IMG/VR virus record: IMGVR_UViG_3300049255_000012
Coordinates: 1 to 42,291 of that record
Reading direction: 5' to 3' (one strand)
DNA: 42,291 nucleotides
Source: a virus
This document shows positions 56-42,253 of this stretch, piece by piece. The first letter of the stretch is position 1. Each line of letters begins with the position of its first letter. Made by a program: the position numbers and the translations under genes. A model generated the notes under the pieces. It searched no databases. It worked only from the letters and a program-made list of their open reading frames with translations, and was not told where the DNA came from.

Positions 56-99
56 TATTCCCGAGTAGCGCAGCGGTAGCGCAGGTGACTGTTAATCAC
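56..99 (+). repeat. attL core (44-bp direct repeat)
   Basis: The stretch is identical to 42165-42208. It begins 3 bp before the tRNA and ends in the 3' side of the anticodon stem. It contains GTGA-CTGTTAA-TCAC, a 7-bp centre with short inverted arms, the usual form of a tyrosine-recombinase core. Sequence diverges at 100, where phage-specific DNA starts. Confidence 0.93.
59..99 (+). pseudogene. truncated tRNA-Asn (5' half)
   Basis: The acceptor 5' strand (TCCCGAG), D-arm, anticodon loop with GTT and anticodon stem are present. The variable loop, T-arm and 3' acceptor strand are missing, so no tRNA can be made. It is the host tRNA start left behind by integration. Confidence 0.9.
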
Positions 100-130
100 C
101 ACTTCGGATATACAAAAGAGGTCTTTTTGC

Positions 131-620: not shown

Positions 621-636
621 GCACCAAATGTGGTGC
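621..636. promoter_or_regulatory. putative operator 2 (GCACCA-AATG-TGGTGC)
   Basis: A perfect 6-4-6 palindrome about 50 bp downstream of the promoter at 541-569. The same palindrome recurs perfectly at 29316-29331, in front of the capsid gene. Half-sites centred 10 bp apart fit a dimeric HTH protein. Confidence 0.6.
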
Positions 637-5924: not shown

Positions 5925-7820
5925 ATGTCGTCGGAATTACCAGCCGCAAAAGATGAAGAAATCGCGCTGCTCGGCTGCCTTTTAACGCTACCGGACGAGC
6001 CGGAAGTCGCGAAAGTCTTGAAGCAAGTAAGCCAAAAGGACTTCGCGATCGCCGCTCACAAAGCCATCTTTCTAGCGGTCGACACTCTTGCGAAAAGTAA
6101 CTCTGAGATCAACGAGCTTGCCGTTAAGAAGTGGCTGCAAAAGCGAGAGCTGCTCGACTCGGTCGGCGGCTTTCCTTATATCACGGCGATTGCAGGGTCG
6201 TATTTTACCCCCAGGCAGATCGACTACTACGTCGATGAGATCAAGGCAAAGACGAGACAACGCGAGCTTATGCGGCTCGTGTCGAAGCTCCTCGACGACG
6301 GTAATCCCGAGTCGATCATCCGGCAGATCGCCGAGCTGCAACCGGTCGACGACCCAGAAGAAAAGGAGAAGAAAAAACGAGTCGTCCGGCTGCCGGCTGA
6401 GGTCAACTCCGAAGTCGACCTACTCACCGAGACCAACGCCGCCGATCGCTTTGTCTTGAAGCATCAAGAGAACGTCCGTTGGACTGGGGACCATTGGTAC
6501 CTATGGGACGGCAAGCGCTGGAAGCAGGACGAGAGCGGCGAGGTCCGCGAGCTGGCAAAGCAAACAAACGGACGCATAGTCACCGACCTATGGGAGGCGA
6601 TCACCGAGAAGGACTCGCTAAGACGCTTCCAAAACAAGATGCTTGGTCGCCGTGGTCTCGACAATACCTTGGAGCTGGCAAAGGCTCGGCTGTTTTTCTC
6701 GCGCACCAAATTTGATACCAACCATTGGCTACTCAACTTCAACAACGGAGCCGTCGAGCTGAATATGTTTGACTCAGCCAAGGAGTATAACGAGCAATTT
6801 GGCAAGCGCCGCGACCACCGGCGAGAGGACAATTGCACAAAGCTACTCGATTACGACTTCGACCCCGACGCGAAGTGTCCCGAGTGGGATGCGTTCATGC
6901 GTATGATCTTCAACAAGTCGGACGAGCTTGTCGCTTACGTAATGCGCGCGGTTGGCTACTCGTTGACCGGTGTCACGTCTGAGCAATGCTTCTTCTTCTG
7001 CTACGGCGAAGGACGCAACGGCAAGACCACCTTTCTTGAGACGATCCTTGACTGCGTCGGCTCGTATGGCAAGACTGCCGACAAACTGTTGATCATGGAG
7101 AAGGGACAACAAACCAAGCATGGAAACCCGATCCAGGTGCTCGGCGTCCGGTACCTGCCGGTCGGCGAGGTCAACGACAAAGACAAGATCGACGAGACCG
7201 CGCTCAAGAATTGCACGGGTGAAGATACGCTCACCGGGTCGAATGTTTTCGAGAACATGATCACATTCAAGTCGACCGCTAAGGTGTGGCTGAGAGGCAA
7301 CGAGAAGCCCAGAGTCCGAGCGACTTTCTCCGTATTTCGCCGCGTGCATTGCATACCGTTCCTAGTCGAGGCTTCCGACGCCCAGGTCGCCAAATACGAC
7401 GGCAAGATCGGCGACGTCCTCCGTCGTGAGCGTCAAGGCATCATGGCAAAAGCCGTGCAAGCTTGCGCGGAATGGCAAGCGTTAGGGAAGCTAATGCCAC
7501 CGCCGGAAGTGGCTGCCGCGACTGAAGAATATCGAAAAGAAATGGACTTCTTCGCGCAAGCGATCGAGGAAGTTTGCGAGATCGACAAAGACAAAACTGA
7601 GTCGAGCCTTAGATCTTGCTCGTTCAAAGACCTACAACAAGCGCTCAACCGCTGGGCCAAAGACAACGAATACCACCCTTGGAATAGACACCGCTTGATC
7701 AAAGACCTGAAGGCTCACAAATTTAGCGGTCCCAAACTGAGACACGGATACCCGCATTATTTCGGGCTCTCTATCCGCGCCGACTGGCTTCCGTCCCAGC
7801 AATTGAGGTACTACCGGTAA
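5925..7820 (+). CDS. primase-helicase: DnaB-N-like domain fused to D5/P4-type SF3 helicase
   Basis: Residues about 7-115 look like the N-terminal domain of DnaB (EEIALLGCLL, ending in QIDYYVDEIKAKTRQREL). The middle region (about 175-330) is D5-N-like and the C-terminal part is an SF3/AAA helicase with Walker A GEGRNGKTT (361-369), a B-type strand YLPVGEVN and the typical AKVWLRGNEKPRV stretch. The family makes ring helicases that start replication of phages such as P4. The N-terminal domain in DnaB binds primase and loader. The fusion suggests loading through host DnaB partners. No primase catalytic motifs are evident, so primase activity is unproven. It overlaps the exonuclease gene by 1 nt (TAATG). 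Confidence 0.85.
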   Translation: MSSELPAAKDEEIALLGCLLTLPDEPEVAKVLKQVSQKDFAIAAHKAIFLAVDTLAKSNSEINELAVKKWLQKRELLDSVGGFPYITAIAGSYFTPRQIDYYVDEIKAKTRQRELMRLVSKLLDDGNPESIIRQIAELQPVDDPEEKEKKKRVVRLPAEVNSEVDLLTETNAADRFVLKHQENVRWTGDHWYLWDGKRWKQDESGEVRELAKQTNGRIVTDLWEAITEKDSLRRFQNKMLGRRGLDNTLELAKARLFFSRTKFDTNHWLLNFNNGAVELNMFDSAKEYNEQFGKRRDHRREDNCTKLLDYDFDPDAKCPEWDAFMRMIFNKSDELVAYVMRAVGYSLTGVTSEQCFFFCYGEGRNGKTTFLETILDCVGSYGKTADKLLIMEKGQQTKHGNPIQVLGVRYLPVGEVNDKDKIDETALKNCTGEDTLTGSNVFENMITFKSTAKVWLRGNEKPRVRATFSVFRRVHCIPFLVEASDAQVAKYDGKIGDVLRRERQGIMAKAVQACAEWQALGKLMPPPEVAAATEEYRKEMDFFAQAIEEVCEIDKDKTESSLRSCSFKDLQQALNRWAKDNEYHPWNRHRLIKDLKAHKFSGPKLRHGYPHYFGLSIRADWLPSQQLRYYR

Positions 7821-19894: not shown

Positions 19895-20407
19895 CTAAGT
19901 TACCTGGTTGTACCAAGACGCGCTAAAGATGCCCGGAGTCGTGCCGACTGTCATAAGGTCGCCCGGAATGTTCTCGTCTCCGGCTTCCTCATATTCCAGA
20001 GTGACGACCATTTGGAGCGCGTCGAGATCGGCTTGTCTAACTTCCATTGGATAAGGTCCGGCGATCACGGTGTTAGGCTCGGCTTGGTTGACGATCCAAA
20101 TGGTGCATATAGGCGGGTTGCCGCTCGTGAGCCCGATCAGCGTGGACATATCGAGCGCCGTATTGTCGATCGTGAGATTGCCAGTCGGTGCCCGCGTCGA
20201 GTCCTCGACCGGAATGCTTATCTGCATTGGCTTCCAGTTGTATACCTGGCTGGTACCATCGACGGTGCTTGTCAGATTTTGGTTGTCGTCGCAGTAGTAC
20301 AGCGGTCCCGGTAAGCTCGGATGAGTGAATTTAATCAGGTGTAAAAACGCTTCGCTGCAAAACCTGGCGAACACACAAGCTAACGAGCCAGAGCTGAGAG
20401 TCCTCAC
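19895..20407 (-). CDS. DUF1833-type minor tail protein
   Basis: The pattern FLHLIKFTHPSLPGPLYYCDDN, QISIPVEDSTRAPTGNLTIDN, IWIVNQAEPN and final TTPGIFSASWY matches DUF1833 tail proteins placed just before the tip protein. I start at GTG 20407, which overlaps the previous stop (GTGA), with AGGTGAGG about 11 nt upstream; an ATG 36 bp earlier would overlap the upstream gene by 40 bp. It is probably a tail-tip or distal-tail component. Confidence 0.72.
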   Translation of the reverse strand: MRTLSSGSLACVFARFCSEAFLHLIKFTHPSLPGPLYYCDDNQNLTSTVDGTSQVYNWKPMQISIPVEDSTRAPTGNLTIDNTALDMSTLIGLTSGNPPICTIWIVNQAEPNTVIAGPYPMEVRQADLDALQMVVTLEYEEAGDENIPGDLMTVGTTPGIFSASWYNQVT

Positions 20408-34251: not shown

Positions 34252-34635
34252 TTAGCCCCCTATTGTTGTCGGCGTCGGTGGCACTATTGACCCAGGCGCG
34301 TACCATGGCATCAGCGCTACCCTGGAATCTTCCGGTTGCGCATGCGTGCCACTTGTTGGATTGCCAAAGACGTCGGTGTTTTGTACCTGATTGATCGTGG
34401 TGCTGATCGCGTCCGCTTGCGCGTATGTGGTCACGCTTTGGAGCTGACAGTCGACCGCGCCATAGCTGCCGTCGCCCATTTCCAGGACAATAAACGGGAA
34501 CGCTCGGATCGTTGCGGGCTGGTAAGATGCGCTCGCGACCGGGTCGGACCAGTCAACGAGGTAATACGATCCCGCTGGTAAACTCGCGACAAACGCGCGG
34601 CTTGGTTGTTCTCTCGGATCGTAAAAGATGATCAT
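34252..34635 (-). CDS. hypothetical protein of the fibre cassette (127 aa)
   Basis: The protein is beta-rich (FVASLPAGSYYLVDWSDP, FPFIVLEMGDGSYGAVD, LQSVTTYAQADAISTTINQV) and Ser/Thr-rich, with a short C-terminal Pro tail. Its start overlaps the Gly-rich gene stop (ATGA). I recognise no family; a fibre chaperone or accessory is possible by position. Confidence 0.5.
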   Translation of the reverse strand: MIIFYDPREQPSRAFVASLPAGSYYLVDWSDPVASASYQPATIRAFPFIVLEMGDGSYGAVDCQLQSVTTYAQADAISTTINQVQNTDVFGNPTSGTHAQPEDSRVALMPWYAPGSIVPPTPTTIGG

Positions 34636-35600
34636 GCGCTTACCTGCGTCGGTCCTATAGTCGCGCCCGCGCCGCCGCTTCCAGCGCTTGCCGCACCATA
34701 GTGAGTGCCACTTCCAGAGCCGCCGGACTCGGTAATCGTCCCAGTATTTGAGAGCGTGCCCGCATACTGGATGTCTATTACGCCACCACCGGAGCCAGCG
34801 CCCGCCGCTGGATAGCTACTACCTGCCCCGCTTCCGCCGGGCTGTCCGAGGCTTTGTATTACAGCGCTCGACCCTATTGTCAGATTGCCGCCGACGCTCA
34901 GCAAAAGCGTTCCGCCGGTGCCGTTCGATCCTGCCGTTCCTGATCCACCGGAGCCAGATCCGCCAGCGCCGCCAGTATTGCCAGCGCCGCCGCCTGAGCC
35001 TTGGTTGCTTCCGCCGCCACCACCCGCGCCACCCGCGCCACAATTAGCGCCGCCTGCCCCGCCAGCCCCGCTAGTCGAAGTGCCCGTATAAGCGCCACCA
35101 CCACCGCCCGAGCCGCCGCCGTAACAGGTACCGGCTGAGCCGTTGCCGCCAGGCCACAGGTCGCTATGATCGGACGAGCTACCAGCGCCACCACCACCGC
35201 CGCCACCACCACCGGTGCCATTGGTTGCCGTCCCACCGCCGGTGCCGGGATTGGTGTTACCGGTTGTCGCGCCTGCGCCGCCGCTTCCGCCAGTCGCGGG
35301 AATCACGTCCACATGCGGGACATGCGAGGTATTGAAATAGGGATTATGCGCGCCTTCGCTCGGTGGCGTCGCGCTGCCGTTGCAAACGACGTTGATCGTA
35401 CCCTGGATATTGCAAGCGCCTTGCACGTAGATGTAGCAGCCCATCGCAGACTGAAGCGTCAATGTCTGCCCGGAATTGACTGTAAGGCTCGTGAATTGCT
35501 TGATCAGCGGGCCGGTCGAGTTGGTATAAGTCGTGTTGCTGCTAATCGTCGCAGCGCCATCACATCCGGTGCCGAAGTTATTATGCCCGTGGTGTCGCAT
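34632..35600 (-). CDS. glycine-rich tail-fibre-like protein
   Basis: After FGTGCDGAATISSNTTY the protein turns into a beta-solenoid-like N-terminal region and then a Gly run (about 110-240, up to nine consecutive Gly) ending in VGGNLTIGSSAVIQSLGQPGGSG. This pattern is common in phage adhesins with polyglycine-type tips. I place the start at ATG 35600, 4 bp after the upstream stop; ribosome-site support is weak. It is probably a receptor-binding or fibre-tip protein. Confidence 0.6.
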   Translation of the reverse strand: MRHHGHNNFGTGCDGAATISSNTTYTNSTGPLIKQFTSLTVNSGQTLTLQSAMGCYIYVQGACNIQGTINVVCNGSATPPSEGAHNPYFNTSHVPHVDVIPATGGSGGAGATTGNTNPGTGGGTATNGTGGGGGGGGGAGSSSDHSDLWPGGNGSAGTCYGGGSGGGGGAYTGTSTSGAGGAGGANCGAGGAGGGGGSNQGSGGGAGNTGGAGGSGSGGSGTAGSNGTGGTLLLSVGGNLTIGSSAVIQSLGQPGGSGAGSSYPAAGAGSGGGVIDIQYAGTLSNTGTITESGGSGSGTHYGAASAGSGGAGATIGPTQVSA

Positions 35601-35604
35601 ACCG

Positions 35605-36096
35605 TTATTCAAGGTACCAATTACTCCCGTCGGACGAGAAGCGGTAAGCATTGAATTGAGCGGTTGCAGTGACCACGCCTGATGCCTGTCCGCTGATTGT
35701 TTGCGAGGATGTCGTATTGAACGTGATCGTGGTGCCACTTCCGGTAAGAATTACGACAATCTCTTGTCCGGCAACGCCGACGGCGGTCGGCAGTGTGCAA
35801 GTGAGCGTCGCCGAGCAGTAATACATATTCTGCGCAACAGCGGTAAAGCTGCTTGATTTGTTGCTTGCGGTAAAGCCACCACCGCCACCACTAGGAGCCG
35901 CCCAGGAGCCATCAGCTCTCAGGAAGTTGGTCGTCCCGCCGCCGGATGCCGGGACAATCCCAGCCGCACCGCTCGTGAAAGTCGGAGGCGTCCCATAAAG
36001 AAGCGTGCCGGTCGCGGTGATGCCGTTAGCAAACTGCCCCGACGATGCTGTCGAAGGTTTGATCGATGTTGACTTCGGGCTGAGACCGCCGAGCAT
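35605..36096 (-). CDS. tail-fibre-like protein with GGTTNFLRADGSW motif
   Basis: The 163-residue protein contains GIVPASGGGTTNFLRADGSWAAP, a motif common in fibre proteins, before a short beta-rich domain with TLPTAVGVAGQEIVVI. TAA of the upstream gene and ATG are separated by 1 base. Likely part of the adsorption apparatus. Confidence 0.62.
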   Translation of the reverse strand: MLGGLSPKSTSIKPSTASSGQFANGITATGTLLYGTPPTFTSGAAGIVPASGGGTTNFLRADGSWAAPSGGGGGFTASNKSSSFTAVAQNMYYCSATLTCTLPTAVGVAGQEIVVILTGSGTTITFNTTSSQTISGQASGVVTATAQFNAYRFSSDGSNWYLE

Positions 36097-36097
36097 T

Positions 36098-36517
36098 TTA
36101 GAAGTCACCGCCAAACGCGAATAGGTTGATCTGTTTTGCGCTTGTCACCGTCACCGGTGCATAAGCGTAGAAGGTCGTCGTCGACTTGATGTCGAGATAC
36201 GGGTTGCCGTAAGCGTCAACCGGTAAGTAAGGGAATTGTGTAGTCTTGAAAGGGAACACCGTCGGAACCGTGTCGAGAGTGCCTGACTGAGCCGGGATCG
36301 AGACGATCCCTAAGTCGTAGTTGGTGGCGGATATGGTGACACCGATCACGATGTCTCGCGCTGAAGTATCGGTCGACGAGACGATCAGCCCCAAGATCCG
36401 CGATCCATTTGTCGCGCCTGTTGCGATCGTTTGCTTCGTTTGACCTGCGGCATTATTGATCGACGCGACCCAGTTTTGGAGCGTTTGAATATAGCCAGGA
36501 AGATTACCCAAAGACAT
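36098..36517 (-). CDS. hypothetical virion-like protein (139 aa)
   Basis: A short protein (SLGNLPGYIQTLQNWVASINNAAG, then ILGLIVSSTDTSARDIVIGV and a final FAFGGDF) with regular beta-strands, resembling small phage decoration or fibre proteins. Coupled to the upstream gene by TAATG. Role unknown. Confidence 0.5.
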   Translation of the reverse strand: MSLGNLPGYIQTLQNWVASINNAAGQTKQTIATGATNGSRILGLIVSSTDTSARDIVIGVTISATNYDLGIVSIPAQSGTLDTVPTVFPFKTTQFPYLPVDAYGNPYLDIKSTTTFYAYAPVTVTSAKQINLFAFGGDF

Positions 36518-36768
36518 TAGAGCCCACCCCCAAGGTATGAAAGCAACGCCGGATCGACCGAGTAAACGATCGTCCGGCTGTTGGTTGAGTCGTCGACCGG
36601 TACACTCCCAGCGCCGGCGAAGTCGATCGTCGTGCGTTGCGTTTGCCCCGTCCCGTTGTTTTGCACGGTGGCGTAGGCTTGCACATACGACGGGTTAACC
36701 ACGTCGCCTGATGTCATCTCGGCGGGCGTGTTATTAGCCCCAACTTTTAACGGCGTCTGGTTTGCCAC
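36517..36768 (-). CDS. hypothetical fibre-cassette protein (83 aa)
   Basis: MANQTPLKVGANNTPAEMTSGDVVNPSYV is Asn/Thr/Gly-rich and ends with a hydrophobic LLSYLGGGL. Its N terminus resembles that of the next upstream gene (VGTNNIPTET versus VGANNTPAEM), suggesting shared attachment motifs. Function unknown. Confidence 0.5.
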   Translation of the reverse strand: MANQTPLKVGANNTPAEMTSGDVVNPSYVQAYATVQNNGTGQTQRTTIDFAGAGSVPVDDSTNSRTIVYSVDPALLSYLGGGL

Positions 36769-36775
36769 TTATCGC

Positions 36776-37285
36776 TTACCTTTGGATCGGAACGATCTGC
36801 AACAGGAAGTCCATTGACGTTGCCGTCGCGGCGACGCCGACTTTCTGCAACAGCGATCCGCTGCCTTGCGCTGGTGCTGTCTGAGTGATAGCGCCCGCGG
36901 TGCCGAGGAAACATTCACCGCCGACGGTCAAACCGGTCAAGCCGGTGATAGCGGGTCCGTTGAACAGATAGACCGAGCCCGATCCAGAGCTTGAAATCGC
37001 AGAAGGCGCATAACCGTGAGCCGGTTTATACGTGGAGTTGTCGGCGTTTCTTACGTTGATCGTCCCGGAGTTGTTCCATTCGCTGATCAGAGCGCCGGCG
37101 GAGATCGCCTCGGATGCCGTTCTCGTCACCGCCGATGATGTCGGCAACATACTTGTGTCGATCAGGCCGGACGAGTTGAGAGCGACGAGCTTGTTGGCGT
37201 CGGCGGAGCCTGCCGAGGTCGTGTTGGGCGTTGTTTCTGTCGGGATGTTGTTTGTTCCGACTGCCAAATATTTGTAGACCGTCAT
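36776..37285 (-). CDS. tail-fibre-like protein (169 aa)
   Basis: The protein starts TVYKYLAVGTNNIPTETTP and then SADANKLVALNSSGLIDTSMLP, a pattern typical of phage fibre collars, and ends with a VGGECFLGTAGAITQTAPAQ segment as in fibre stalks. Likely part of the receptor-binding apparatus. Confidence 0.6.
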   Translation of the reverse strand: MTVYKYLAVGTNNIPTETTPNTTSAGSADANKLVALNSSGLIDTSMLPTSSAVTRTASEAISAGALISEWNNSGTINVRNADNSTYKPAHGYAPSAISSSGSGSVYLFNGPAITGLTGLTVGGECFLGTAGAITQTAPAQGSGSLLQKVGVAATATSMDFLLQIVPIQR

Positions 37286-37300
37286 TGTAAGTTGTCCTCT

Positions 37301-38086
37301 TTAGAGTGCGACCGGTTGCCCCGTGTTGACCACCAACACGGAGCTAGATTTTGCGTATCCGATAAGTTGGCTCCAAACGGCTCCTGAAGCGTTGGGCGTG
37401 GTACTCAACACCCCGTTTAAACCAACAAAGTAAAAGCTGTCTTGCGTCCAAGATCCGCCCGCGACCTCGCCGGCGAATTGGTAATTGATCGTCGCGCCTA
37501 CGAGCCCAGATTGCGAAGCAACGCCGATCACCTTGCCTGCATGAGCGAGGTTTGTTGGGTTGGCCGGATACAATAAACCGCCGATCAAAACGACGGCAGT
37601 ATCTGCGCTTATTGATGTGCCCGCGGTCTCCGATCCGCCGCCGGTCCCCGTGCCTGGCGGTCCCTGATAGCCCACTGTCACGACCGTGATCTCACCGGTG
37701 CCCGAGACGGTGACACCAGATGTAGTGCCGCCGCCCTCGATCGCTCCGTCAAAGGCGTTGTACTCGCCGGAGAGCAATGTCACGACGTCGCCATTAGGGA
37801 AAGTAAAGGTCAGGTCGTATGCGGCCGTCCTGAAGTTGAGCGCGGCTTGTTGCGCGCTCGTCCAAGCCAGGCTCGACGATCCGTTCGGAGGATCAGCGAT
37901 CACGATGCCACTATTGCCGGTGGTCAGCGTTCCGTAAACTGCCGCATTGGCTGAGCGATTCGCGCGGATGATCATCGTCGCGCTACAGCCGGTCAGGTTG
38001 ATCGGGTTTCCGTTCTCGTCATTCCACTGAATGACTCGACGAAATGCATCGCCGAGAACGTTTGCGAAGTCCCATTGACCAGGCAT
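37301..38086 (-). CDS. baseplate/fibre-like protein (261 aa)
   Basis: The N-terminal domain (DFANVLGDAFRRVIQWNDENGNPINLTGCSATMIIRANRSA) looks like a phage upper-baseplate or fibre adaptor domain. It is followed by a collagen-like GYQGPPGTGTGGG and a C-terminal VIGVASQSGLVGATINYQFAGEV domain that recurs in fibre proteins. It starts at the stop of the previous gene (TAATG). Confidence 0.6.
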   Translation of the reverse strand: MPGQWDFANVLGDAFRRVIQWNDENGNPINLTGCSATMIIRANRSANAAVYGTLTTGNSGIVIADPPNGSSSLAWTSAQQAALNFRTAAYDLTFTFPNGDVVTLLSGEYNAFDGAIEGGGTTSGVTVSGTGEITVVTVGYQGPPGTGTGGGSETAGTSISADTAVVLIGGLLYPANPTNLAHAGKVIGVASQSGLVGATINYQFAGEVAGGSWTQDSFYFVGLNGVLSTTPNASGAVWSQLIGYAKSSSVLVVNTGQPVAL

Positions 38087-38715
38087 TAGCTTTGGAGTTC
38101 CTCTTGCACGATGTCGGCCAACTCGCCAACGAAAAGACCGGCTTTGAAAGCGCCTTTTTGGACCAATTTATCGACGATTTTTATGGCTAAATTGCGGTTT
38201 TTTTGTCTCAAATCCGCGTCAAAAGCCGGATTTTCCGGTGAAAAGTCTTGTTTTTTCGGATATTTCTCGCTGCAATCGCAAGTCACCGCACAAAAGAGAC
38301 AAAAGTCGTTTGACGACGCTCGACGCTCCATGCCGAGTAGCTCTTTACCTTCGGCGTCGAAAAGCCGGCTATCGTTCCAGATCATTGTAGCGCCTCCGCA
38401 TAATGCCACCATCAGCGATACCACCAACATTAACGCGAGCTTAAATACCCCCCTTGGCAATTTTGCGGTGGTGCCCTTTGGGCCCAACGCGCGTTCCATC
38501 AGGATTGCGATACAGCGATTAAGACCCCCATACCCCTGGACGCCGAGCCTGTCAGCGTTTGCGCGATCGCTGCCGAATGCAGTCGACCTAAGTTCCGAAA
38601 ACCTGGCGGTGTCATGCTTTGCGGTGTTCATGCCGATCAGCACCCGATCATCCCATACCTGATAGCCGGTTCCCGTGCCAAGGCATCGCCCCTCCCATCG
38701 CTTAATCTTGATCAT
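38086..38715 (-). CDS. hypothetical membrane protein (209 aa)
   Basis: ATG 38715 overlaps the upstream stop (ATGA). The 209 residues include a basic N-terminal domain, one transmembrane segment (about 92-112, LALMLVVSLMVALCGGATM) and a Cys-rich stretch (DFCLFCAVTCDC), then a helical C terminus. No family is known. An ORF on the opposite strand (38111-38662) is a shadow. Confidence 0.5.
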   Translation of the reverse strand: MIKIKRWEGRCLGTGTGYQVWDDRVLIGMNTAKHDTARFSELRSTAFGSDRANADRLGVQGYGGLNRCIAILMERALGPKGTTAKLPRGVFKLALMLVVSLMVALCGGATMIWNDSRLFDAEGKELLGMERRASSNDFCLFCAVTCDCSEKYPKKQDFSPENPAFDADLRQKNRNLAIKIVDKLVQKGAFKAGLFVGELADIVQEELQS

Positions 38716-39095
38716 TTTGCCTTCGGTAGCTCGACGCGCACCTGAAAAGCTTCGGCTACTTCCTCGCCGTCCCAACTACTGATCCTTAGCCAGCAGGTAT
38801 AGACCTTAGATACTGTCACTTCATAGCCACTCGCCTTAAATTCTGCCGCCACGAGGTCGGCATGTGCCCTGGTGAGAAACTTAGCCGAAGCCGAGAAGTC
38901 GCGTTTGACTTGTCGAATCAGGCTATTGCGCTCGTAATCTTGCTCGGTTTCTTCTATAAGTCTCAGGCGCTTGGCTTGTTTCGCTGCAATTGATGCTGCT
39001 GATGGTATGCTCTTGGCGGAACAAACGGGCGTCATGCTCAGCGCTAGCAACGAGGATATGACAATGGTTGAAATAATCTTTTGGATTTTGATCAT
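38712..39095 (-). CDS. putative secreted protein, internal start in the HNH frame
   Basis: An internal ATG with GAGGACC 9 nt upstream begins MIKIQKIISTIVISSLLALSMTPVCSAKS, a clear Sec-type signal peptide with an AxA-like cut. The remaining 100 residues are helical and charged with two pairs of possible Cys. It may be a second product of the HNH frame or the true gene, with HNH ending just before. Function unknown; exported to the envelope. Confidence 0.5.
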   Translation of the reverse strand: MIKIQKIISTIVISSLLALSMTPVCSAKSIPSAASIAAKQAKRLRLIEETEQDYERNSLIRQVKRDFSASAKFLTRAHADLVAAEFKASGYEVTVSKVYTCWLRISSWDGEEVAEAFQVRVELPKAK

Positions 39096-39515
39096 TCTAT
39101 CGGTCCTCGGTTCGCATAAGCCATATTGTCGCGCGGACTGAGCGGTCGCTCTCCTGTTGCCAAAGCCACCATCGCTGGTGGCAGTCTTGCGTGAGTGACA
39201 GTTTCCACAAAGCGATTGCAGGTTGGACAACTCGTCGGGACCGCCTGATTGCCGTGGTAAGCGGTGGTCTACGTGTGTAGCATTGCGGTTGCACGGTCGG
39301 CCGTCCTGCAATGTCGCTTCGCAGAATGGTTTAGTGGTCAGTTGCTCGCGTCGGAGCCATTGCCAAAACTTGGATTTATAGAACGAGACATCGGCAGGGT
39401 TGCGCCCGACGTTCTTCGCCTGTTCGCGCTGTAGTGTGTGCTCGGTACACAGACTTGAGCAAGTGTAGGTCTTACAACCTGGTTTATTACACTTATGTGG
39501 TGCTCGTGTAGGCAA
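38712..39515 (-). CDS. HNH endonuclease fused in frame to a signal-peptide segment
   Basis: The first 120 residues are a typical phage HNH nuclease: zinc Cys pairs (C9/C14, C19/C23), FYKSKFWQWLRREQL, and HVDH (81-84), NLQSLCGNCHSRKT (98-111). Such enzymes nick DNA near the terminase site during packaging. Unlike usual HNH genes, no stop follows; the frame runs about 20 codons into a signal peptide protein starting at 39095. The start is a TTG without a good ribosome site. It opens the late gene set. Confidence 0.8.
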   Translation of the reverse strand: MPTRAPHKCNKPGCKTYTCSSLCTEHTLQREQAKNVGRNPADVSFYKSKFWQWLRREQLTTKPFCEATLQDGRPCNRNATHVDHRLPRQSGGPDELSNLQSLCGNCHSRKTATSDGGFGNRRATAQSARQYGLCEPRTDRMIKIQKIISTIVISSLLALSMTPVCSAKSIPSAASIAAKQAKRLRLIEETEQDYERNSLIRQVKRDFSASAKFLTRAHADLVAAEFKASGYEVTVSKVYTCWLRISSWDGEEVAEAFQVRVELPKAK

Positions 39516-39653
39516 TGACCGATAACCGACGTTTGAGATCGATGCGGTTGGTACCTAGCACGATCAAGAATTACAAACGCGGTCGAGTCAAACTCGCCAC
39601 AAGAACCAATTGCATAAATAGTATCAAACTGTTGAGGATAAGCAAGAGCGACG

Positions 39654-39669
39654 GAACCAAATGTGGTGC
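39654..39669. promoter_or_regulatory. putative operator 5 (GAACCA-AATG-TGGTGC)
   Basis: One mismatch to the palindrome; its spacer AATG equals that of operator 2 at 621-636. Centre to centre it is 28 bp from operator 6. Confidence 0.5.
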
Positions 39670-39681
39670 GTATATCCAACG

Positions 39682-39697
39682 GCACCATATTTGATGC
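39682..39697. promoter_or_regulatory. putative operator 6 (GCACCA-TATT-TGATGC)
   Basis: One mismatch to the palindrome. It lies 15 bp upstream of the -35 box at 39712. Confidence 0.5.
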
Positions 39698-39711
39698 CTG
39701 GAAATTAGTCG

Positions 39712-39740
39712 TTGACACTTCGCCGTTTCCGTCGTTTAAT
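39712..39740 (+). promoter_or_regulatory. strong sigma70-like promoter reading into non-coding DNA
   Basis: TTGACA, a 17-bp spacer and TTTAAT match the consensus at 11 of 12 positions. No plus-strand gene follows before the integrase at 40967, so the transcript would cross the repeat region and run antisense to the secreted-protein gene. Confidence 0.5.
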
Positions 39741-39770
39741 TCAATCCCGCTGTGGGGACAGGTTGCGTAA

Positions 39771-40107
39771 GTGGTGGAAGTTAAGCACCACAGGCTGAGA
39801 AGACACCACAAGTCACCCGCATATACACCACAGCAAAACCTTTACTAGACAATCGATAGCGGACTTCTGGGTGGCAAGGTGGCAACAAATCCCAGAAAGG
39901 TCGCAGGTGTGCGCGTGCGCGCGCGCCCGTATTTTATCTTTGACTATGTAGTTTTTTGCCCCGAATTGCTAACGATTTTTTTTTGCTTTAATTTATAGGA
40001 AAATCAATCCACCATTCCACCACAAAGACTGAAAAAGAAGAGTAGATAAAGGTTTTACTGTGGTGTATATACGGGTGGAAGCTGGGTGGAATGTGGTGGA
40101 AGTTAAG
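39771..40107. repeat. nested direct and inverted repeats
   Basis: The direct repeat GTGGTGGAAGTTAAG occurs at both ends. Inside, 39814-39844 is the reverse complement of 40047-40077 at 29 of 31 positions, with arms 202 bp apart. Several further CACCAC/GTGGTG copies lie between. This resembles iteron-type origins or a large regulatory structure. Confidence 0.75.
39907..39926. other. alternating purine-pyrimidine run (Z-DNA prone)
   Basis: GTGTGCGCGTGCGCGCGCGC alternates strictly for 20 bp in the loop of the 31-bp inverted repeat. Such runs readily adopt Z-DNA under negative supercoiling. Confidence 0.7.
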
Positions 40108-40210
40108 AAACTAGCGCAATTAGCGGATATATAGAGCCTGAGATTGGCTTAAGCGCTTGATTACAGCATTTTTCGTTAGCCAAAAGTTATGTTTACAACG
40201 GATTGACTTT

Positions 40211-40780
40211 TTAGAGATCGTCAATCTCGGATTTTGTTGCAGTTTGCATCCTCTCAATTTCTCGGGACCGCAAAGCTAAATTAGAAAAGATGATCAAGGC
40301 TTTGTCCAAATCGGAATGCTCGTCGATCTTTATTTCGTTGCCGCCATATCGCCAGACAAATACGTCGTCGTCGATCGATGCACCAAAAGCGTTTGATTTT
40401 ACGACCGTTTTTGATGCTATCGGCTTGCCGTACTTAGCTTTTAGAGCGGCTTCGATAGCAATACAGTTGTCGGAGTCGGTTTGCAGGTAAACCGTGCAAA
40501 GCCGCTTAGAATCAGGCGAATAGTTGAGTAAGACCGTCTCAACTGGAATGCCTGCAAATGTGGTGCTTTCAATCAAGCCTGCGTCGCCCGTGAGTTTGAC
40601 GCCATTTCTAGCGGCTTGTATTTGGACTTCTGAAACAGTCGACCCAGGGATTATCCCTTTGAAGCTGATCGGTTGCTTTGCGCTTGAGGTCGCGATCGAG
40701 GCCCTAAGCGGAGTTGCGCTCGCTTGGCTGAGTGAAGCTAGCATTATGGCTGGTAATAGAAATATCTTGGTAGTACGCAT
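40211..40780 (-). CDS. secreted or periplasmic cargo protein (moron)
   Basis: The 189-residue protein starts MRTTKIFLLPAIMLASLSQASA, a clear signal peptide. The mature part begins ISFKGIIPGSTVSEVQIQAARNG and contains AALKAKYGKP and WRYGGNEIKID, a layout I recall from bacterial periplasmic proteins of unknown function. It is transcribed apart from the phage gene sets, next to the integrase, as lysogenic conversion genes often are. It could alter the envelope or block superinfection; neither is shown. Confidence 0.6.
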   Translation of the reverse strand: MRTTKIFLLPAIMLASLSQASATPLRASIATSSAKQPISFKGIIPGSTVSEVQIQAARNGVKLTGDAGLIESTTFAGIPVETVLLNYSPDSKRLCTVYLQTDSDNCIAIEAALKAKYGKPIASKTVVKSNAFGASIDDDVFVWRYGGNEIKIDEHSDLDKALIIFSNLALRSREIERMQTATKSEIDDL

Positions 40781-40815
40781 ACGGCTGAGATTGAGCCTTT
40801 CAGGAATTTCTCAGG

Positions 40816-40831
40816 ATTGTATCAATACAAT
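40816..40831. promoter_or_regulatory. 16-bp palindrome between cargo gene and integrase
   Basis: ATTGTAT-CA-ATACAAT is a perfect 7-bp inverted repeat in the divergent intergenic region. A DNA-binding site is likely. Confidence 0.5.
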
Positions 40832-40891
40832 GAGGATCTAAAGCCAATATTTGGCAGGCATATAGATGTATGTCTTTTAAGTGCTGTCCGC

Positions 40892-40919
40892 TTGTCAGAT
40901 ACTACGACATTCGTAGTAT
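40892..40919 (+). promoter_or_regulatory. integrase promoter overlapped by a 9-bp palindrome
   Basis: TTGTCA (40892-40897), a 16-bp spacer and TAGTAT (40914-40919) form a plausible promoter. ATACTACGA and TCGTAGTAT (40899-40907, 40911-40919) form a perfect palindrome filling the spacer and -10, so a bound protein would block it. Confidence 0.5.
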
Positions 40920-40966
40920 TGGGCGATATCGGGCCGCCCCCAACCTTGAGCAATTTTGGAGGCACA

Positions 40967-41911
40967 ATGGATCGACTTCCCACACTGAGACAGGTTTTTA
41001 ACGATTACCTGGTATCAAGACAAAACCTAAAACCCTCAACCATCCTTGATTACAGAAAACGGCTCAAATGTGTCGAGGATTGGCTTGATTTGCCAGTTTC
41101 AGCGATCACAAAAGACATGGTCGAGGAAAAGCATCGAGAAATCAGTATAAAAGGAAAGGCGCAAGCCAATGTGACGTTTAGAGTCGTCCGCGCATTGCTG
41201 AATTACGCAAGAAGCAAGTACGAGAACGAGCATGAACAGCCGATCTTAAAAACAAACGTCGTCAGCCGGCTTACGGAAGTGCGCGCATGGAATAAGGTGC
41301 GCGGTCGTCGCACAATCATAACTGCCGCACAAATGCCGGATTGGTGGCGAGCTGTCTCGTGTTTGCGCAATAGAACAGTCCGCGACTATCTCATGTTGCT
41401 GATGCTTACCGGACTTCGGCGAAGCGAAGCGGCAAGCTTGCAATGGAAAGACGTGGATCTGCAAGCTGGTTTCCTCAGAGTGCTAGATCCGAAAAATGGC
41501 GAGCATCACGAGTTGCCGCTCTCTGACTTCCTTTGGGACATGCTCAGAGTTCGAAAAGCTCACGCGAGAAAGGAAAACCCGCATGTATTCCCAGGGCGAG
41601 TACCTGGTTGCGGACTGTCGAATTGCTTCAAGAGCTTCGATCGCGTTTTCGTCGGTTGCGGTTTTCGTTTCAAATTGCATGACCTGCGTCGGACATTCTT
41701 GACGACGGCTCACGAGCTGAAAATCGACCTGTTCACTTTGCGTCAACTTGCCAACCATAAGGCAAACGACGACATCACCGCTTTATATGTGATTCAAAAC
41801 TATGAAATGTTGCGGCCAACGATGCAGAAGATCACGGATCTACTGTTGTCGCGGGCTGGTGTTCGAAAAGTTGGCAATGTGGTTTCAATCGTAAAAGGAG
41901 TAGCAGAATGA
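40967..41911 (+). CDS. int: tyrosine-recombinase integrase
   Basis: I start at ATG 40967 (GGAGG 6 nt upstream); an ATG at 40817 would include the promoter palindrome. The 314 residues have a SAM-like core-binding domain (about 5-110) and a catalytic domain with R151 (TGLRRSEA), probable K176, H238xxR241 (HDLRRTF), H264 (ANHK) and Y274 (TALY). It recombines attP with the tRNA-Asn attB. It lies beside attR, as usual. No separate arm-binding domain is obvious at the N terminus. Confidence 0.92.
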   Translation: MDRLPTLRQVFNDYLVSRQNLKPSTILDYRKRLKCVEDWLDLPVSAITKDMVEEKHREISIKGKAQANVTFRVVRALLNYARSKYENEHEQPILKTNVVSRLTEVRAWNKVRGRRTIITAAQMPDWWRAVSCLRNRTVRDYLMLLMLTGLRRSEAASLQWKDVDLQAGFLRVLDPKNGEHHELPLSDFLWDMLRVRKAHARKENPHVFPGRVPGCGLSNCFKSFDRVFVGCGFRFKLHDLRRTFLTTAHELKIDLFTLRQLANHKANDDITALYVIQNYEMLRPTMQKITDLLLSRAGVRKVGNVVSIVKGVAE

Positions 41912-42164: not shown

Positions 42165-42208
42165 TATTCCCGAGTAGCGCAGCGGTAGCGCAGGTGACTG
42201 TTAATCAC
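42165..42208 (+). repeat. attR core (44-bp direct repeat)
   Basis: Identical to 56-99. It ends at the 3' side of the anticodon stem; sequence after it completes the host tRNA. The distance between the two cores gives a prophage length of 42109 bp. Confidence 0.93.
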
Positions 42209-42239
42209 TTGGTCGTAGGTTCGAATCCTACCTCGGGAG
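42168..42239 (+). tRNA. tRNA-Asn(GTT), restored hybrid gene
   Basis: A 72-nt cloverleaf: acceptor TCCCGAG/CTCGGGA, D-arm GCGC/GCGC, anticodon stem GGTGA/TCACT with loop CTGTTAA (GTT at 42200-42202), T-arm GTAGG/CCTAC, discriminator G. CCA is not encoded. The 5' half comes from the phage, the 3' half from the host. Confidence 0.95.
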
Positions 42240-42253
42240 TTCCTTAAAAATTG

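What the first reader, a model, noticed from the sequence alone, without database searches (positions are those of the whole stretch)
39771..40107. Candidate replication origin or control RNA with nested repeats
A 15-bp direct repeat encloses a 31-bp inverted repeat (29/31 matches) with arms 202 bp apart, many GGTGG iteron-like words, a 20-bp Z-prone run and AT-rich DNA with a nine-T run. The region is free of convincing genes and lies at the end of the late gene set. Two models fit: an iteron-type origin for the D5-type helicase, or a large regulatory RNA.
Basis: partly seen in the sequence, partly recalled or inferred. Interest (0 to 1): 0.65.

Follow-up and report, generated by a model that had tools for sequence, protein, structure and literature searches.

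The report
Likely prophage replication origin, P4 type
A 340-letter stretch with no genes in a bacterial prophage looks like the place where the virus starts copying its DNA: mirrored clusters of short protein-binding words around an easily melted centre, a layout shared with origins already described in phages that carry a related helicase.

Summary
Window 39771-40107 has the exact 15-bp direct repeat, the 31-bp inverted repeat (29/31, 202 bp apart), eight GGTGG words (0.75 expected), a 20-bp alternating GC-rich run and a T9 run, in a 695-bp noncoding gap, the largest in the phage by my gene list. The gap lies at the start, not the end, of the leftward late operon. The two halves form one ~120-bp imperfect inverted duplication around a centre that is among the most AT-rich spots of the genome.

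Best reading: a replication origin for the phage's own P4-family (TIGR01613) helicase. Seven of nine phages checked with such an enzyme have inverted short iterons around an AT-rich core directly 3' of the gene; two of these (A2, Sfi21) are annotated origins. A genome scan ranks the annotated or presumed origin first in 6 of 7 of them, and this region first in the window. Its triple iteron (GGTGGA at 11 and 10 bp) resembles the P4 ori triple (GGTGAA at 10 and 11 bp). Known cos regions lack such arrays.

The origin here is about 8 kb from its helicase gene, unusual but not without precedent. Function is untested. A new member of a known kind.

The parts
39771..40107 (.). whole element: putative replication origin, an imperfect inverted duplication of about 120 bp per side
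   Evidence: top-ranked window of the genome in the iteron scan
39814..39844 (+). left 31-nt inverted arm
   Evidence: 29/31 complementary to 40047-40077; best of 100 shuffles 22
40047..40077 (+). right 31-nt inverted arm
39771..39785 (+). outer 15-bp direct repeat, copy 1 (GTGGTGGAAGTTAAG), contains a GGTGGAA iteron
40093..40107 (+). outer 15-bp direct repeat, copy 2; overlaps the third GGTGGAA of the triple
39786..39829 (-). left outer iterons: CACC cores at 39786, 39804, 39814, 39826
40062..40101 (+). right outer iterons: GGTG cores at 40062, 40074, 40085, 40095; the last three are GGTGGAA at 11 and 10 bp spacing, like the P4 ori triple
39869..39882 (+). left inner pair of GGTGG words, 8 bp apart
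40009..40023 (-). right inner pair of GGTGG words, 8 bp apart, opposite orientation
39907..39926 (.). 20-bp alternating purine-pyrimidine GC-rich run (Z-prone; role unknown)
   Evidence: read; scored as terminator-like stem on + strand, at the rate of shuffles
39931..40008 (.). AT-rich centre with T9 (39976-39984), presumed melting site
   Evidence: 50-bp windows down to 26% GC, among the lowest in the genome
5925..7820 (+). D5/P4-family (TIGR01613) helicase with DnaB N-terminal domain, presumed initiator
38712..39515 (-). HNH endonuclease, first gene of the late operon downstream of the element

Best explanation
The region is the phage's replication origin. Inferred steps: after induction the P4-family helicase (5925-7820) binds the GGTG-core iterons of both half-sites, assembles rings facing each other across the centre, melts the AT-rich stretch and unwinds outward. 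Its DnaB N-terminal domain, present where relatives carry a longer primase-containing region, recruits host DnaG to prime. Shown: the repeat anatomy, the AT-rich centre, the helicase family, and the shared anatomy in relatives. Inferred: binding, melting, priming.
For: The helicase passes the TIGR01613 P4-family cut-off (199.7 vs 108.7 bits). Of nine phages with such an enzyme that I examined, seven (PLM26, EV3, phi105, A2, Sfi21, TMW 1.591 P1, DS11) have short words inverted around an AT-rich core directly 3' of the gene; A2 and Sfi21 are annotated origins. A whole-genome scan for inverted over-represented words ranks that gap first in 6 of 7 of these genomes and ranks 39761-40100 first in the window. 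The P4 record annotates an ori away from the alpha gene and next to late genes, with three type 1 repeats 10 and 11 bp apart; the window has three GGTGGAA 11 and 10 bp apart, and a three-copy pattern fits only these two sites in 3.9 Mb of strand (pattern written post hoc). PICI origins are described as two iteron sets flanking an AT-rich region (PMC6092414 figure legend). The centre is among the two most AT-rich spots of the genome.
Against: The element is about 8 kb from the helicase gene, while 7 of 9 controls have it directly 3'. The other two (TG1, Shambre1) have no array there. In 16 of 80 TerL prophage loci that hold a D5/P4-type match, only one (L041) had its top window directly after the gene (several loci are truncated). 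The window's scan score (8.8, or 7.24 tied with a coding window under a stricter letter rule) is modest: non-origin windows in control genomes reach 8-11. The centre (44% GC between the 31-bp arms) is less AT-rich than in the controls (11-36%), though the host genome is richer in GC. EV3 is weak in the shuffle test. The control phages with A2-like primases are related to each other. No diverged homologue of the element was found.
Confidence: 0.72

Rival explanations
1. Operator and promoter region of the late operon: a phage regulator binds the GGTG half-sites, loops the two arms together and switches leftward late transcription.
For: The gap lies directly upstream of the first late gene. TGTGGTG-type words also occur singly at 625, 687, 39658 and 40555 outside the element, as expected of a dispersed regulator site. 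Small putative regulator-like ORFs lie at 131-400 and 929-1138, but their family matches are below cut-off.
Against: No sigma-70-like promoter was found in 39300-40900 on either strand (other promoter types are not covered). The arms, AT-rich centre and phasing match origins better. It is not exclusive: the P4 ori also abuts late genes.
Confidence: 0.13
2. The packaging (cos) site: HNH, TerS and TerL act here, with the inverted iterons as terminase-binding sites and the GC-rich run as the nicking site.
For: The phage has HNH, P27-type TerS and HK97-type TerL, and no other sizeable gap lies between HNH and TerS in my gene list. The Sfi21 record describes its cos as having dyad symmetry and conspicuous repeats.
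Against: In phi105 (annotated cos), and in HK97 and AS1 by their record ends, cos lies between HNH and TerS, downstream of HNH; here the element is upstream of HNH. Four cos regions tested (phi105, HK97, AS1, left side of Sfi21) show no excess of inverted words over shuffles.
Confidence: 0.08
3. A large structured RNA or leader made from the late-sense strand.
For: Fold z-scores -7.7 (minus strand) and -5.7 (plus strand). Both mismatches of the 31-bp arms become G-U pairs in the minus-strand, late-sense RNA (read).
Against: No Rfam match at gathering or relaxed threshold. An inverted duplication folds well on both strands by construction, and two G-U pairs on the favourable side are likely enough by chance. 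No diverged homologue was found for covariation.
Confidence: 0.06

Closest known systems
Phage P4 ori and crr (alpha-protein type 1 iterons, NC_001609)
   Same: GGTG-core short iterons in both orientations; three in tandem at 10-11 bp; a ~300-bp element with ~120-bp repeated halves (crr); an origin away from the helicase gene and next to late genes; helicase of the same family TIGR01613
   Different: Iteron is GGTGGAA rather than GGTGAACA; the ~120-bp halves are inverted here and direct in crr; one cluster here rather than separate ori and crr
Origins of Lactobacillus phage A2 and Streptococcus phage Sfi21 (annotated rep_origin / 302-bp PER element) and the same gap in phi105, PLM26, EV3, TMW 1.591 P1, DS11
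   Same: Phage-specific short words inverted on both sides of an AT-rich core, with perfect inverted arms of 11-18 bp; helicase of family TIGR01613
   Different: Those lie directly 3' of the primase-helicase gene; here the element is about 8 kb away, the arms are longer (31 bp) and the centre is less AT-rich
PICI / SaPI replication origins
   Different: PICI origins lie directly 3' of rep; no PICI sequence was compared here
pRN1-type plasmid origin
   Same: SF3-type replication protein and a large stem-loop as origin (PMC4234260 abstract and passages)
   Different: pRN1 has a ~100-bp stem-loop without iterons, 3' of the gene

Membership tests
P4-family phage replication origin | Genome encodes a TIGR01613 P4-family primase-helicase | tested here: met
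   window 5925-7820: 199.7 bits, cut-off 108.7
P4-family phage replication origin | Several copies of a short word in both orientations, on both sides of a centre | tested here: met
   CACCAC 4 and 3 copies, GGTGGA 4 and 2 copies; top window of the genome; 0 of 100 shuffles reach the inverted-word score for 6-, 7- and 8-mers
P4-family phage replication origin | AT-rich centre between the iteron sets | tested here: met
   50-bp windows down to 26% GC, among the lowest in the genome; but 44% GC overall between the 31-bp arms because of the GC-rich run
P4-family phage replication origin | Lies directly 3' of the helicase gene (usual but not constant) | tested here: not met
   next gene overlaps the helicase stop; element about 8 kb away on the circle. 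Not defining, as P4 ori also lies elsewhere
P4-family phage replication origin | Bound by the initiator and sufficient for replication | not testable with these tools
   needs footprinting and a replication assay
cos site of HNH / HK97-type phages | Located between HNH and TerS | tested here: not met
   element is upstream of HNH; cos is between HNH and TerS in phi105, HK97 and AS1
cos site of HNH / HK97-type phages | Cleaved to give virion ends | not testable with these tools
   needs virion DNA end mapping
Known structured RNA families | Match to an Rfam model | tested here: not met

The most novel reading that the evidence does not exclude
A P4-type replicon that has been taken apart and rebuilt: the initiator has exchanged its primase region for a DnaB-type primase-recruiting domain, and its origin, a ~120-bp inverted duplication rather than the usual separate iteron sets, has moved next to the packaging genes. 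It would be a relocated, symmetric origin that fires with host DnaG and may also govern late transcription.
Probability: 0.35. Interest if true: 0.5.

Novelty: new member of a known kind. Interest (0 to 1): 0.37.

Why it matters
It gives a concrete, testable origin for a prophage with no close relative in the collections searched. It also suggests a simple rule: in phages with a P4-family helicase, the strongest cluster of inverted short words around an AT-rich core marks the origin; the scan placed the annotated or presumed origin first in 6 of 7 control genomes. The helicase, with a DnaB domain where relatives have a primase region, would make primase recruitment by such enzymes testable.

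Tried and rejected
Transposon or MITE with terminal inverted repeats: no target-site duplication at the arm ends (28 bp on one side and 15 bp on the other separate the 15-bp repeats from the arms; read), and a 20-mer of the arm, scanned in IMG/VR, matched only one contig, which is near-identical to this phage. Integrase arm sites: the integration core is at 56-99 / 42165-42208, over 2 kb away. Coding gene: ORF 39338-39811 scores negative for coding and overlaps HNH by 178 bp.

Relatives: single-protein scans of viral contigs with HNH, integrase, TerL, D5 and major capsid protein gave near-identical contigs of this phage plus a few distant ones, and none for D5. A TerL-profile scan of genome contigs kept 80 loci, best 42% identity. 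So no covariation or footprint analysis of the element was possible. The host was not identified; one contig carries about 1.6 kb of host flank.

Structure models: the D5 helicase model is poor (pLDDT 38) and the small ORF 929-1138 model mediocre (pLDDT 69); no fold search was run. Of 80 TerL loci, 16 hold a D5/P4-type match, and only one (L041) had its top iteron window directly after that gene. Acidovorax phage Aval's VirE-type protein is not a detectable relative of D5 (E 1.1), so Aval was not counted among the nine. The controls A2, TMW, EV3, PLM26 and phi105 have related primases (37-61% identity to A2), so they are not fully independent, although their iteron words differ.

Full report
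WHAT THE WINDOW IS. The window is a whole virus record (G000) of 42,291 bp: a prophage in a tRNA-Asn gene, with a 44-bp core at 56-99 and 42165-42208, an integrase at 40817-41911, rightward early genes with a DNA helicase (1481-2911) and a D5-type helicase (5925-7820), and a leftward late operon. That operon starts with an HNH endonuclease (38712-39515) and includes P27-type TerS, HK97-type TerL and portal genes.

THE OBSERVATION. The repeats are as described and far beyond chance. The region lies in a 695-bp gap upstream of HNH, the largest gap between the genes I accepted, with no coding signal. Aligning the left half with the reverse complement of the right half shows one imperfect inverted duplication of about 120 bp per side. 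From outside to inside, each side has four CACC/GGTG cores (spacings 18, 10, 12 on the left and 10, 11, 12 on the right), then a shared AAAACCTTTA block, then two GGTGG words 8 bp apart in the opposite orientation. Between the halves lie a 20-bp alternating GC-rich run and an AT-rich stretch with T9. 50-bp windows there fall to 26% GC; only one other place in the genome (about 10.86-10.92 kb) is as low.

RELATED SEQUENCES. Close relatives are absent: near-identical contigs of the same phage turned up, and otherwise TerL relatives reach 42% at best. Comparison therefore rests on architecture. The phage's helicase belongs to TIGR01613, the P4 family (199.7 bits, cut-off 108.7).

COMPARISON WITH PHAGES CARRYING SUCH ENZYMES. 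In nine such phages I looked at the DNA directly 3' of the gene. Seven have a roughly 250-350-bp stretch with short words inverted around an AT-rich core: Listeria PLM26, Lactobacillus EV3 and Bacillus phi105, and Lactobacillus A2, Streptococcus Sfi21, Latilactobacillus TMW 1.591 P1 and Staphylococcus DS11. In six of the seven, the inverted-word score for 6-mers is reached by 0 of 100 shuffles; EV3 is weaker (1 of 100 for 6-mers, 7 of 100 for 7-mers). The A2 stretch is annotated rep_origin. The Sfi21 stretch is annotated as a 302-bp origin and phage inhibitory sequence, and is described in PMC6356513 (passages read) as an origin activated by viral infection. Two of the nine, Streptomyces TG1 and Arthrobacter Shambre1, lack such an array there. 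TIGR01613 was scanned with eight proteins, P4 alpha included, and all eight reach the cut-off; DS11 and Shambre1 rest on tblastn only.

GENOME SCAN. A 340-bp sliding scan for over-represented words present at least twice in each orientation ranked the origin gap first in 6 of 7 of these genomes (EV3's was not in its top six). In the window it ranked the finding's region first: tied with a coding window at 7.24, where two-letter words were excluded, and 8.8 against 7.24, where they were allowed. The score is modest; non-origin windows in control genomes reach 8-11. Four cos regions (phi105, HK97, AS1, left side of Sfi21) and the Aval HNH-TerS gap show no excess over shuffles. Of 80 TerL prophage loci, 16 hold a D5/P4-type match and one of these 16 (L041) has its top window directly after the gene; several of these loci are cut short near the gene.

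P4 ITSELF. The P4 record annotates crr (300 bp, two 120-bp repeats with 8-bp type 1 repeats in both orientations) directly 3' of alpha, and an ori more than 2 kb from alpha and just upstream of the late genes. The ori holds three type 1 repeats 10 and 11 bp apart, GGTGAACA on the plus strand. The window has three GGTGGAA 11 and 10 bp apart. A pattern for three GGTG[AG]A at that spacing finds only these two sites in 3.9 Mb of strand (the 93 sequences scanned). I wrote the pattern after seeing both, so this is suggestive and not an independent test.

POSITION. The element is about 8 kb from its helicase gene on the circle, unlike seven of the nine controls. The P4 ori gives a precedent for a distant site. 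TG1 may give another: a ~100-bp element with inverted GTGACG/CGTCAC words around an AT-rich core occurs twice there, one copy between the integrase and the HNH-terminase end. Its function is unknown to me.

MECHANISM. I infer that the helicase binds both half-sites, forms opposed rings, melts the centre and unwinds outward. The enzyme has a DnaB N-terminal domain at residues 6-107 (PF00772), and its shared part starts at residue 145-169 where that of five relatives starts at about 300-330, so their primase region is replaced and the enzyme probably recruits host DnaG. That domain's contact with DnaG is recalled knowledge, not a result of a call.

RIVALS. A late operator or promoter region (0.13), cos (0.08) and a structured RNA (0.06) are not excluded and could coexist; the P4 ori also abuts late genes. 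The RNA case has good folds on both strands and G-U-compatible mismatches on the late-sense strand, but no Rfam match.

LITERATURE. Passages read: PMC6092414 (PICI origins: two iteron sets flanking an AT-rich region), PMC4234260 (pRN1 stem-loop origin with an SF3-type protein), PMC9410871 (HK97 cos and HNH), PMC6356513, PMC8965321. The original papers on the P4, A2 and Sfi21 origins were not read; I rely on the record annotations. Two searches for printed accounts of a DnaB-SF3 chimera failed or gave nothing on point.

VERDICT. A replication origin of the P4 family is the most likely reading (0.72). It is a new member of a known kind, unusual in its position and in the symmetry of its arms.

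Noticed in passing
window 5925-7820 (+): The D5/P4-family helicase carries a DnaB N-terminal domain (residues 6-107) where relatives have a longer primase-containing region; none of the INPHARED hits listed covers this N-terminus together with the helicase.
   Followed up: partly
window 623-636, 687-698, 39656-39669, 40554-40566: CAAATGTGGTG(C) words recur on the plus strand near both ends of the prophage; the first forms a GCACCA-N4-TGGTGC dyad. They may be regulator or extra initiator sites.
   Followed up: partly
L112 (Streptomyces phage TG1) about 20080-20180 and 39145-39245: A ~100-bp element with inverted GTGACG/CGTCAC words around an AT-rich core is present twice, 91% mean column identity, once between integrase and the HNH-terminase end.
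   Followed up: partly
window 59-109: Weak Rfam tRNA match that is the attL remnant of the tRNA-Asn target gene; the intact tRNA is at 42167-42240.
   Followed up: yes
window 34252-39515 (-): Several fibre- or tail-like genes lie between HNH and TerS with no gap for cos; in phi105, HK97 and AS1 cos lies between HNH and TerS. The position of cos here is open.
   Followed up: no
L041 about 2981 (Rhodospirillales MAG prophage): A strong iteron window (AAGGTC, 7 and 2 copies) directly follows a D5/P4-type gene, a likely origin of the usual placement.
   Followed up: no
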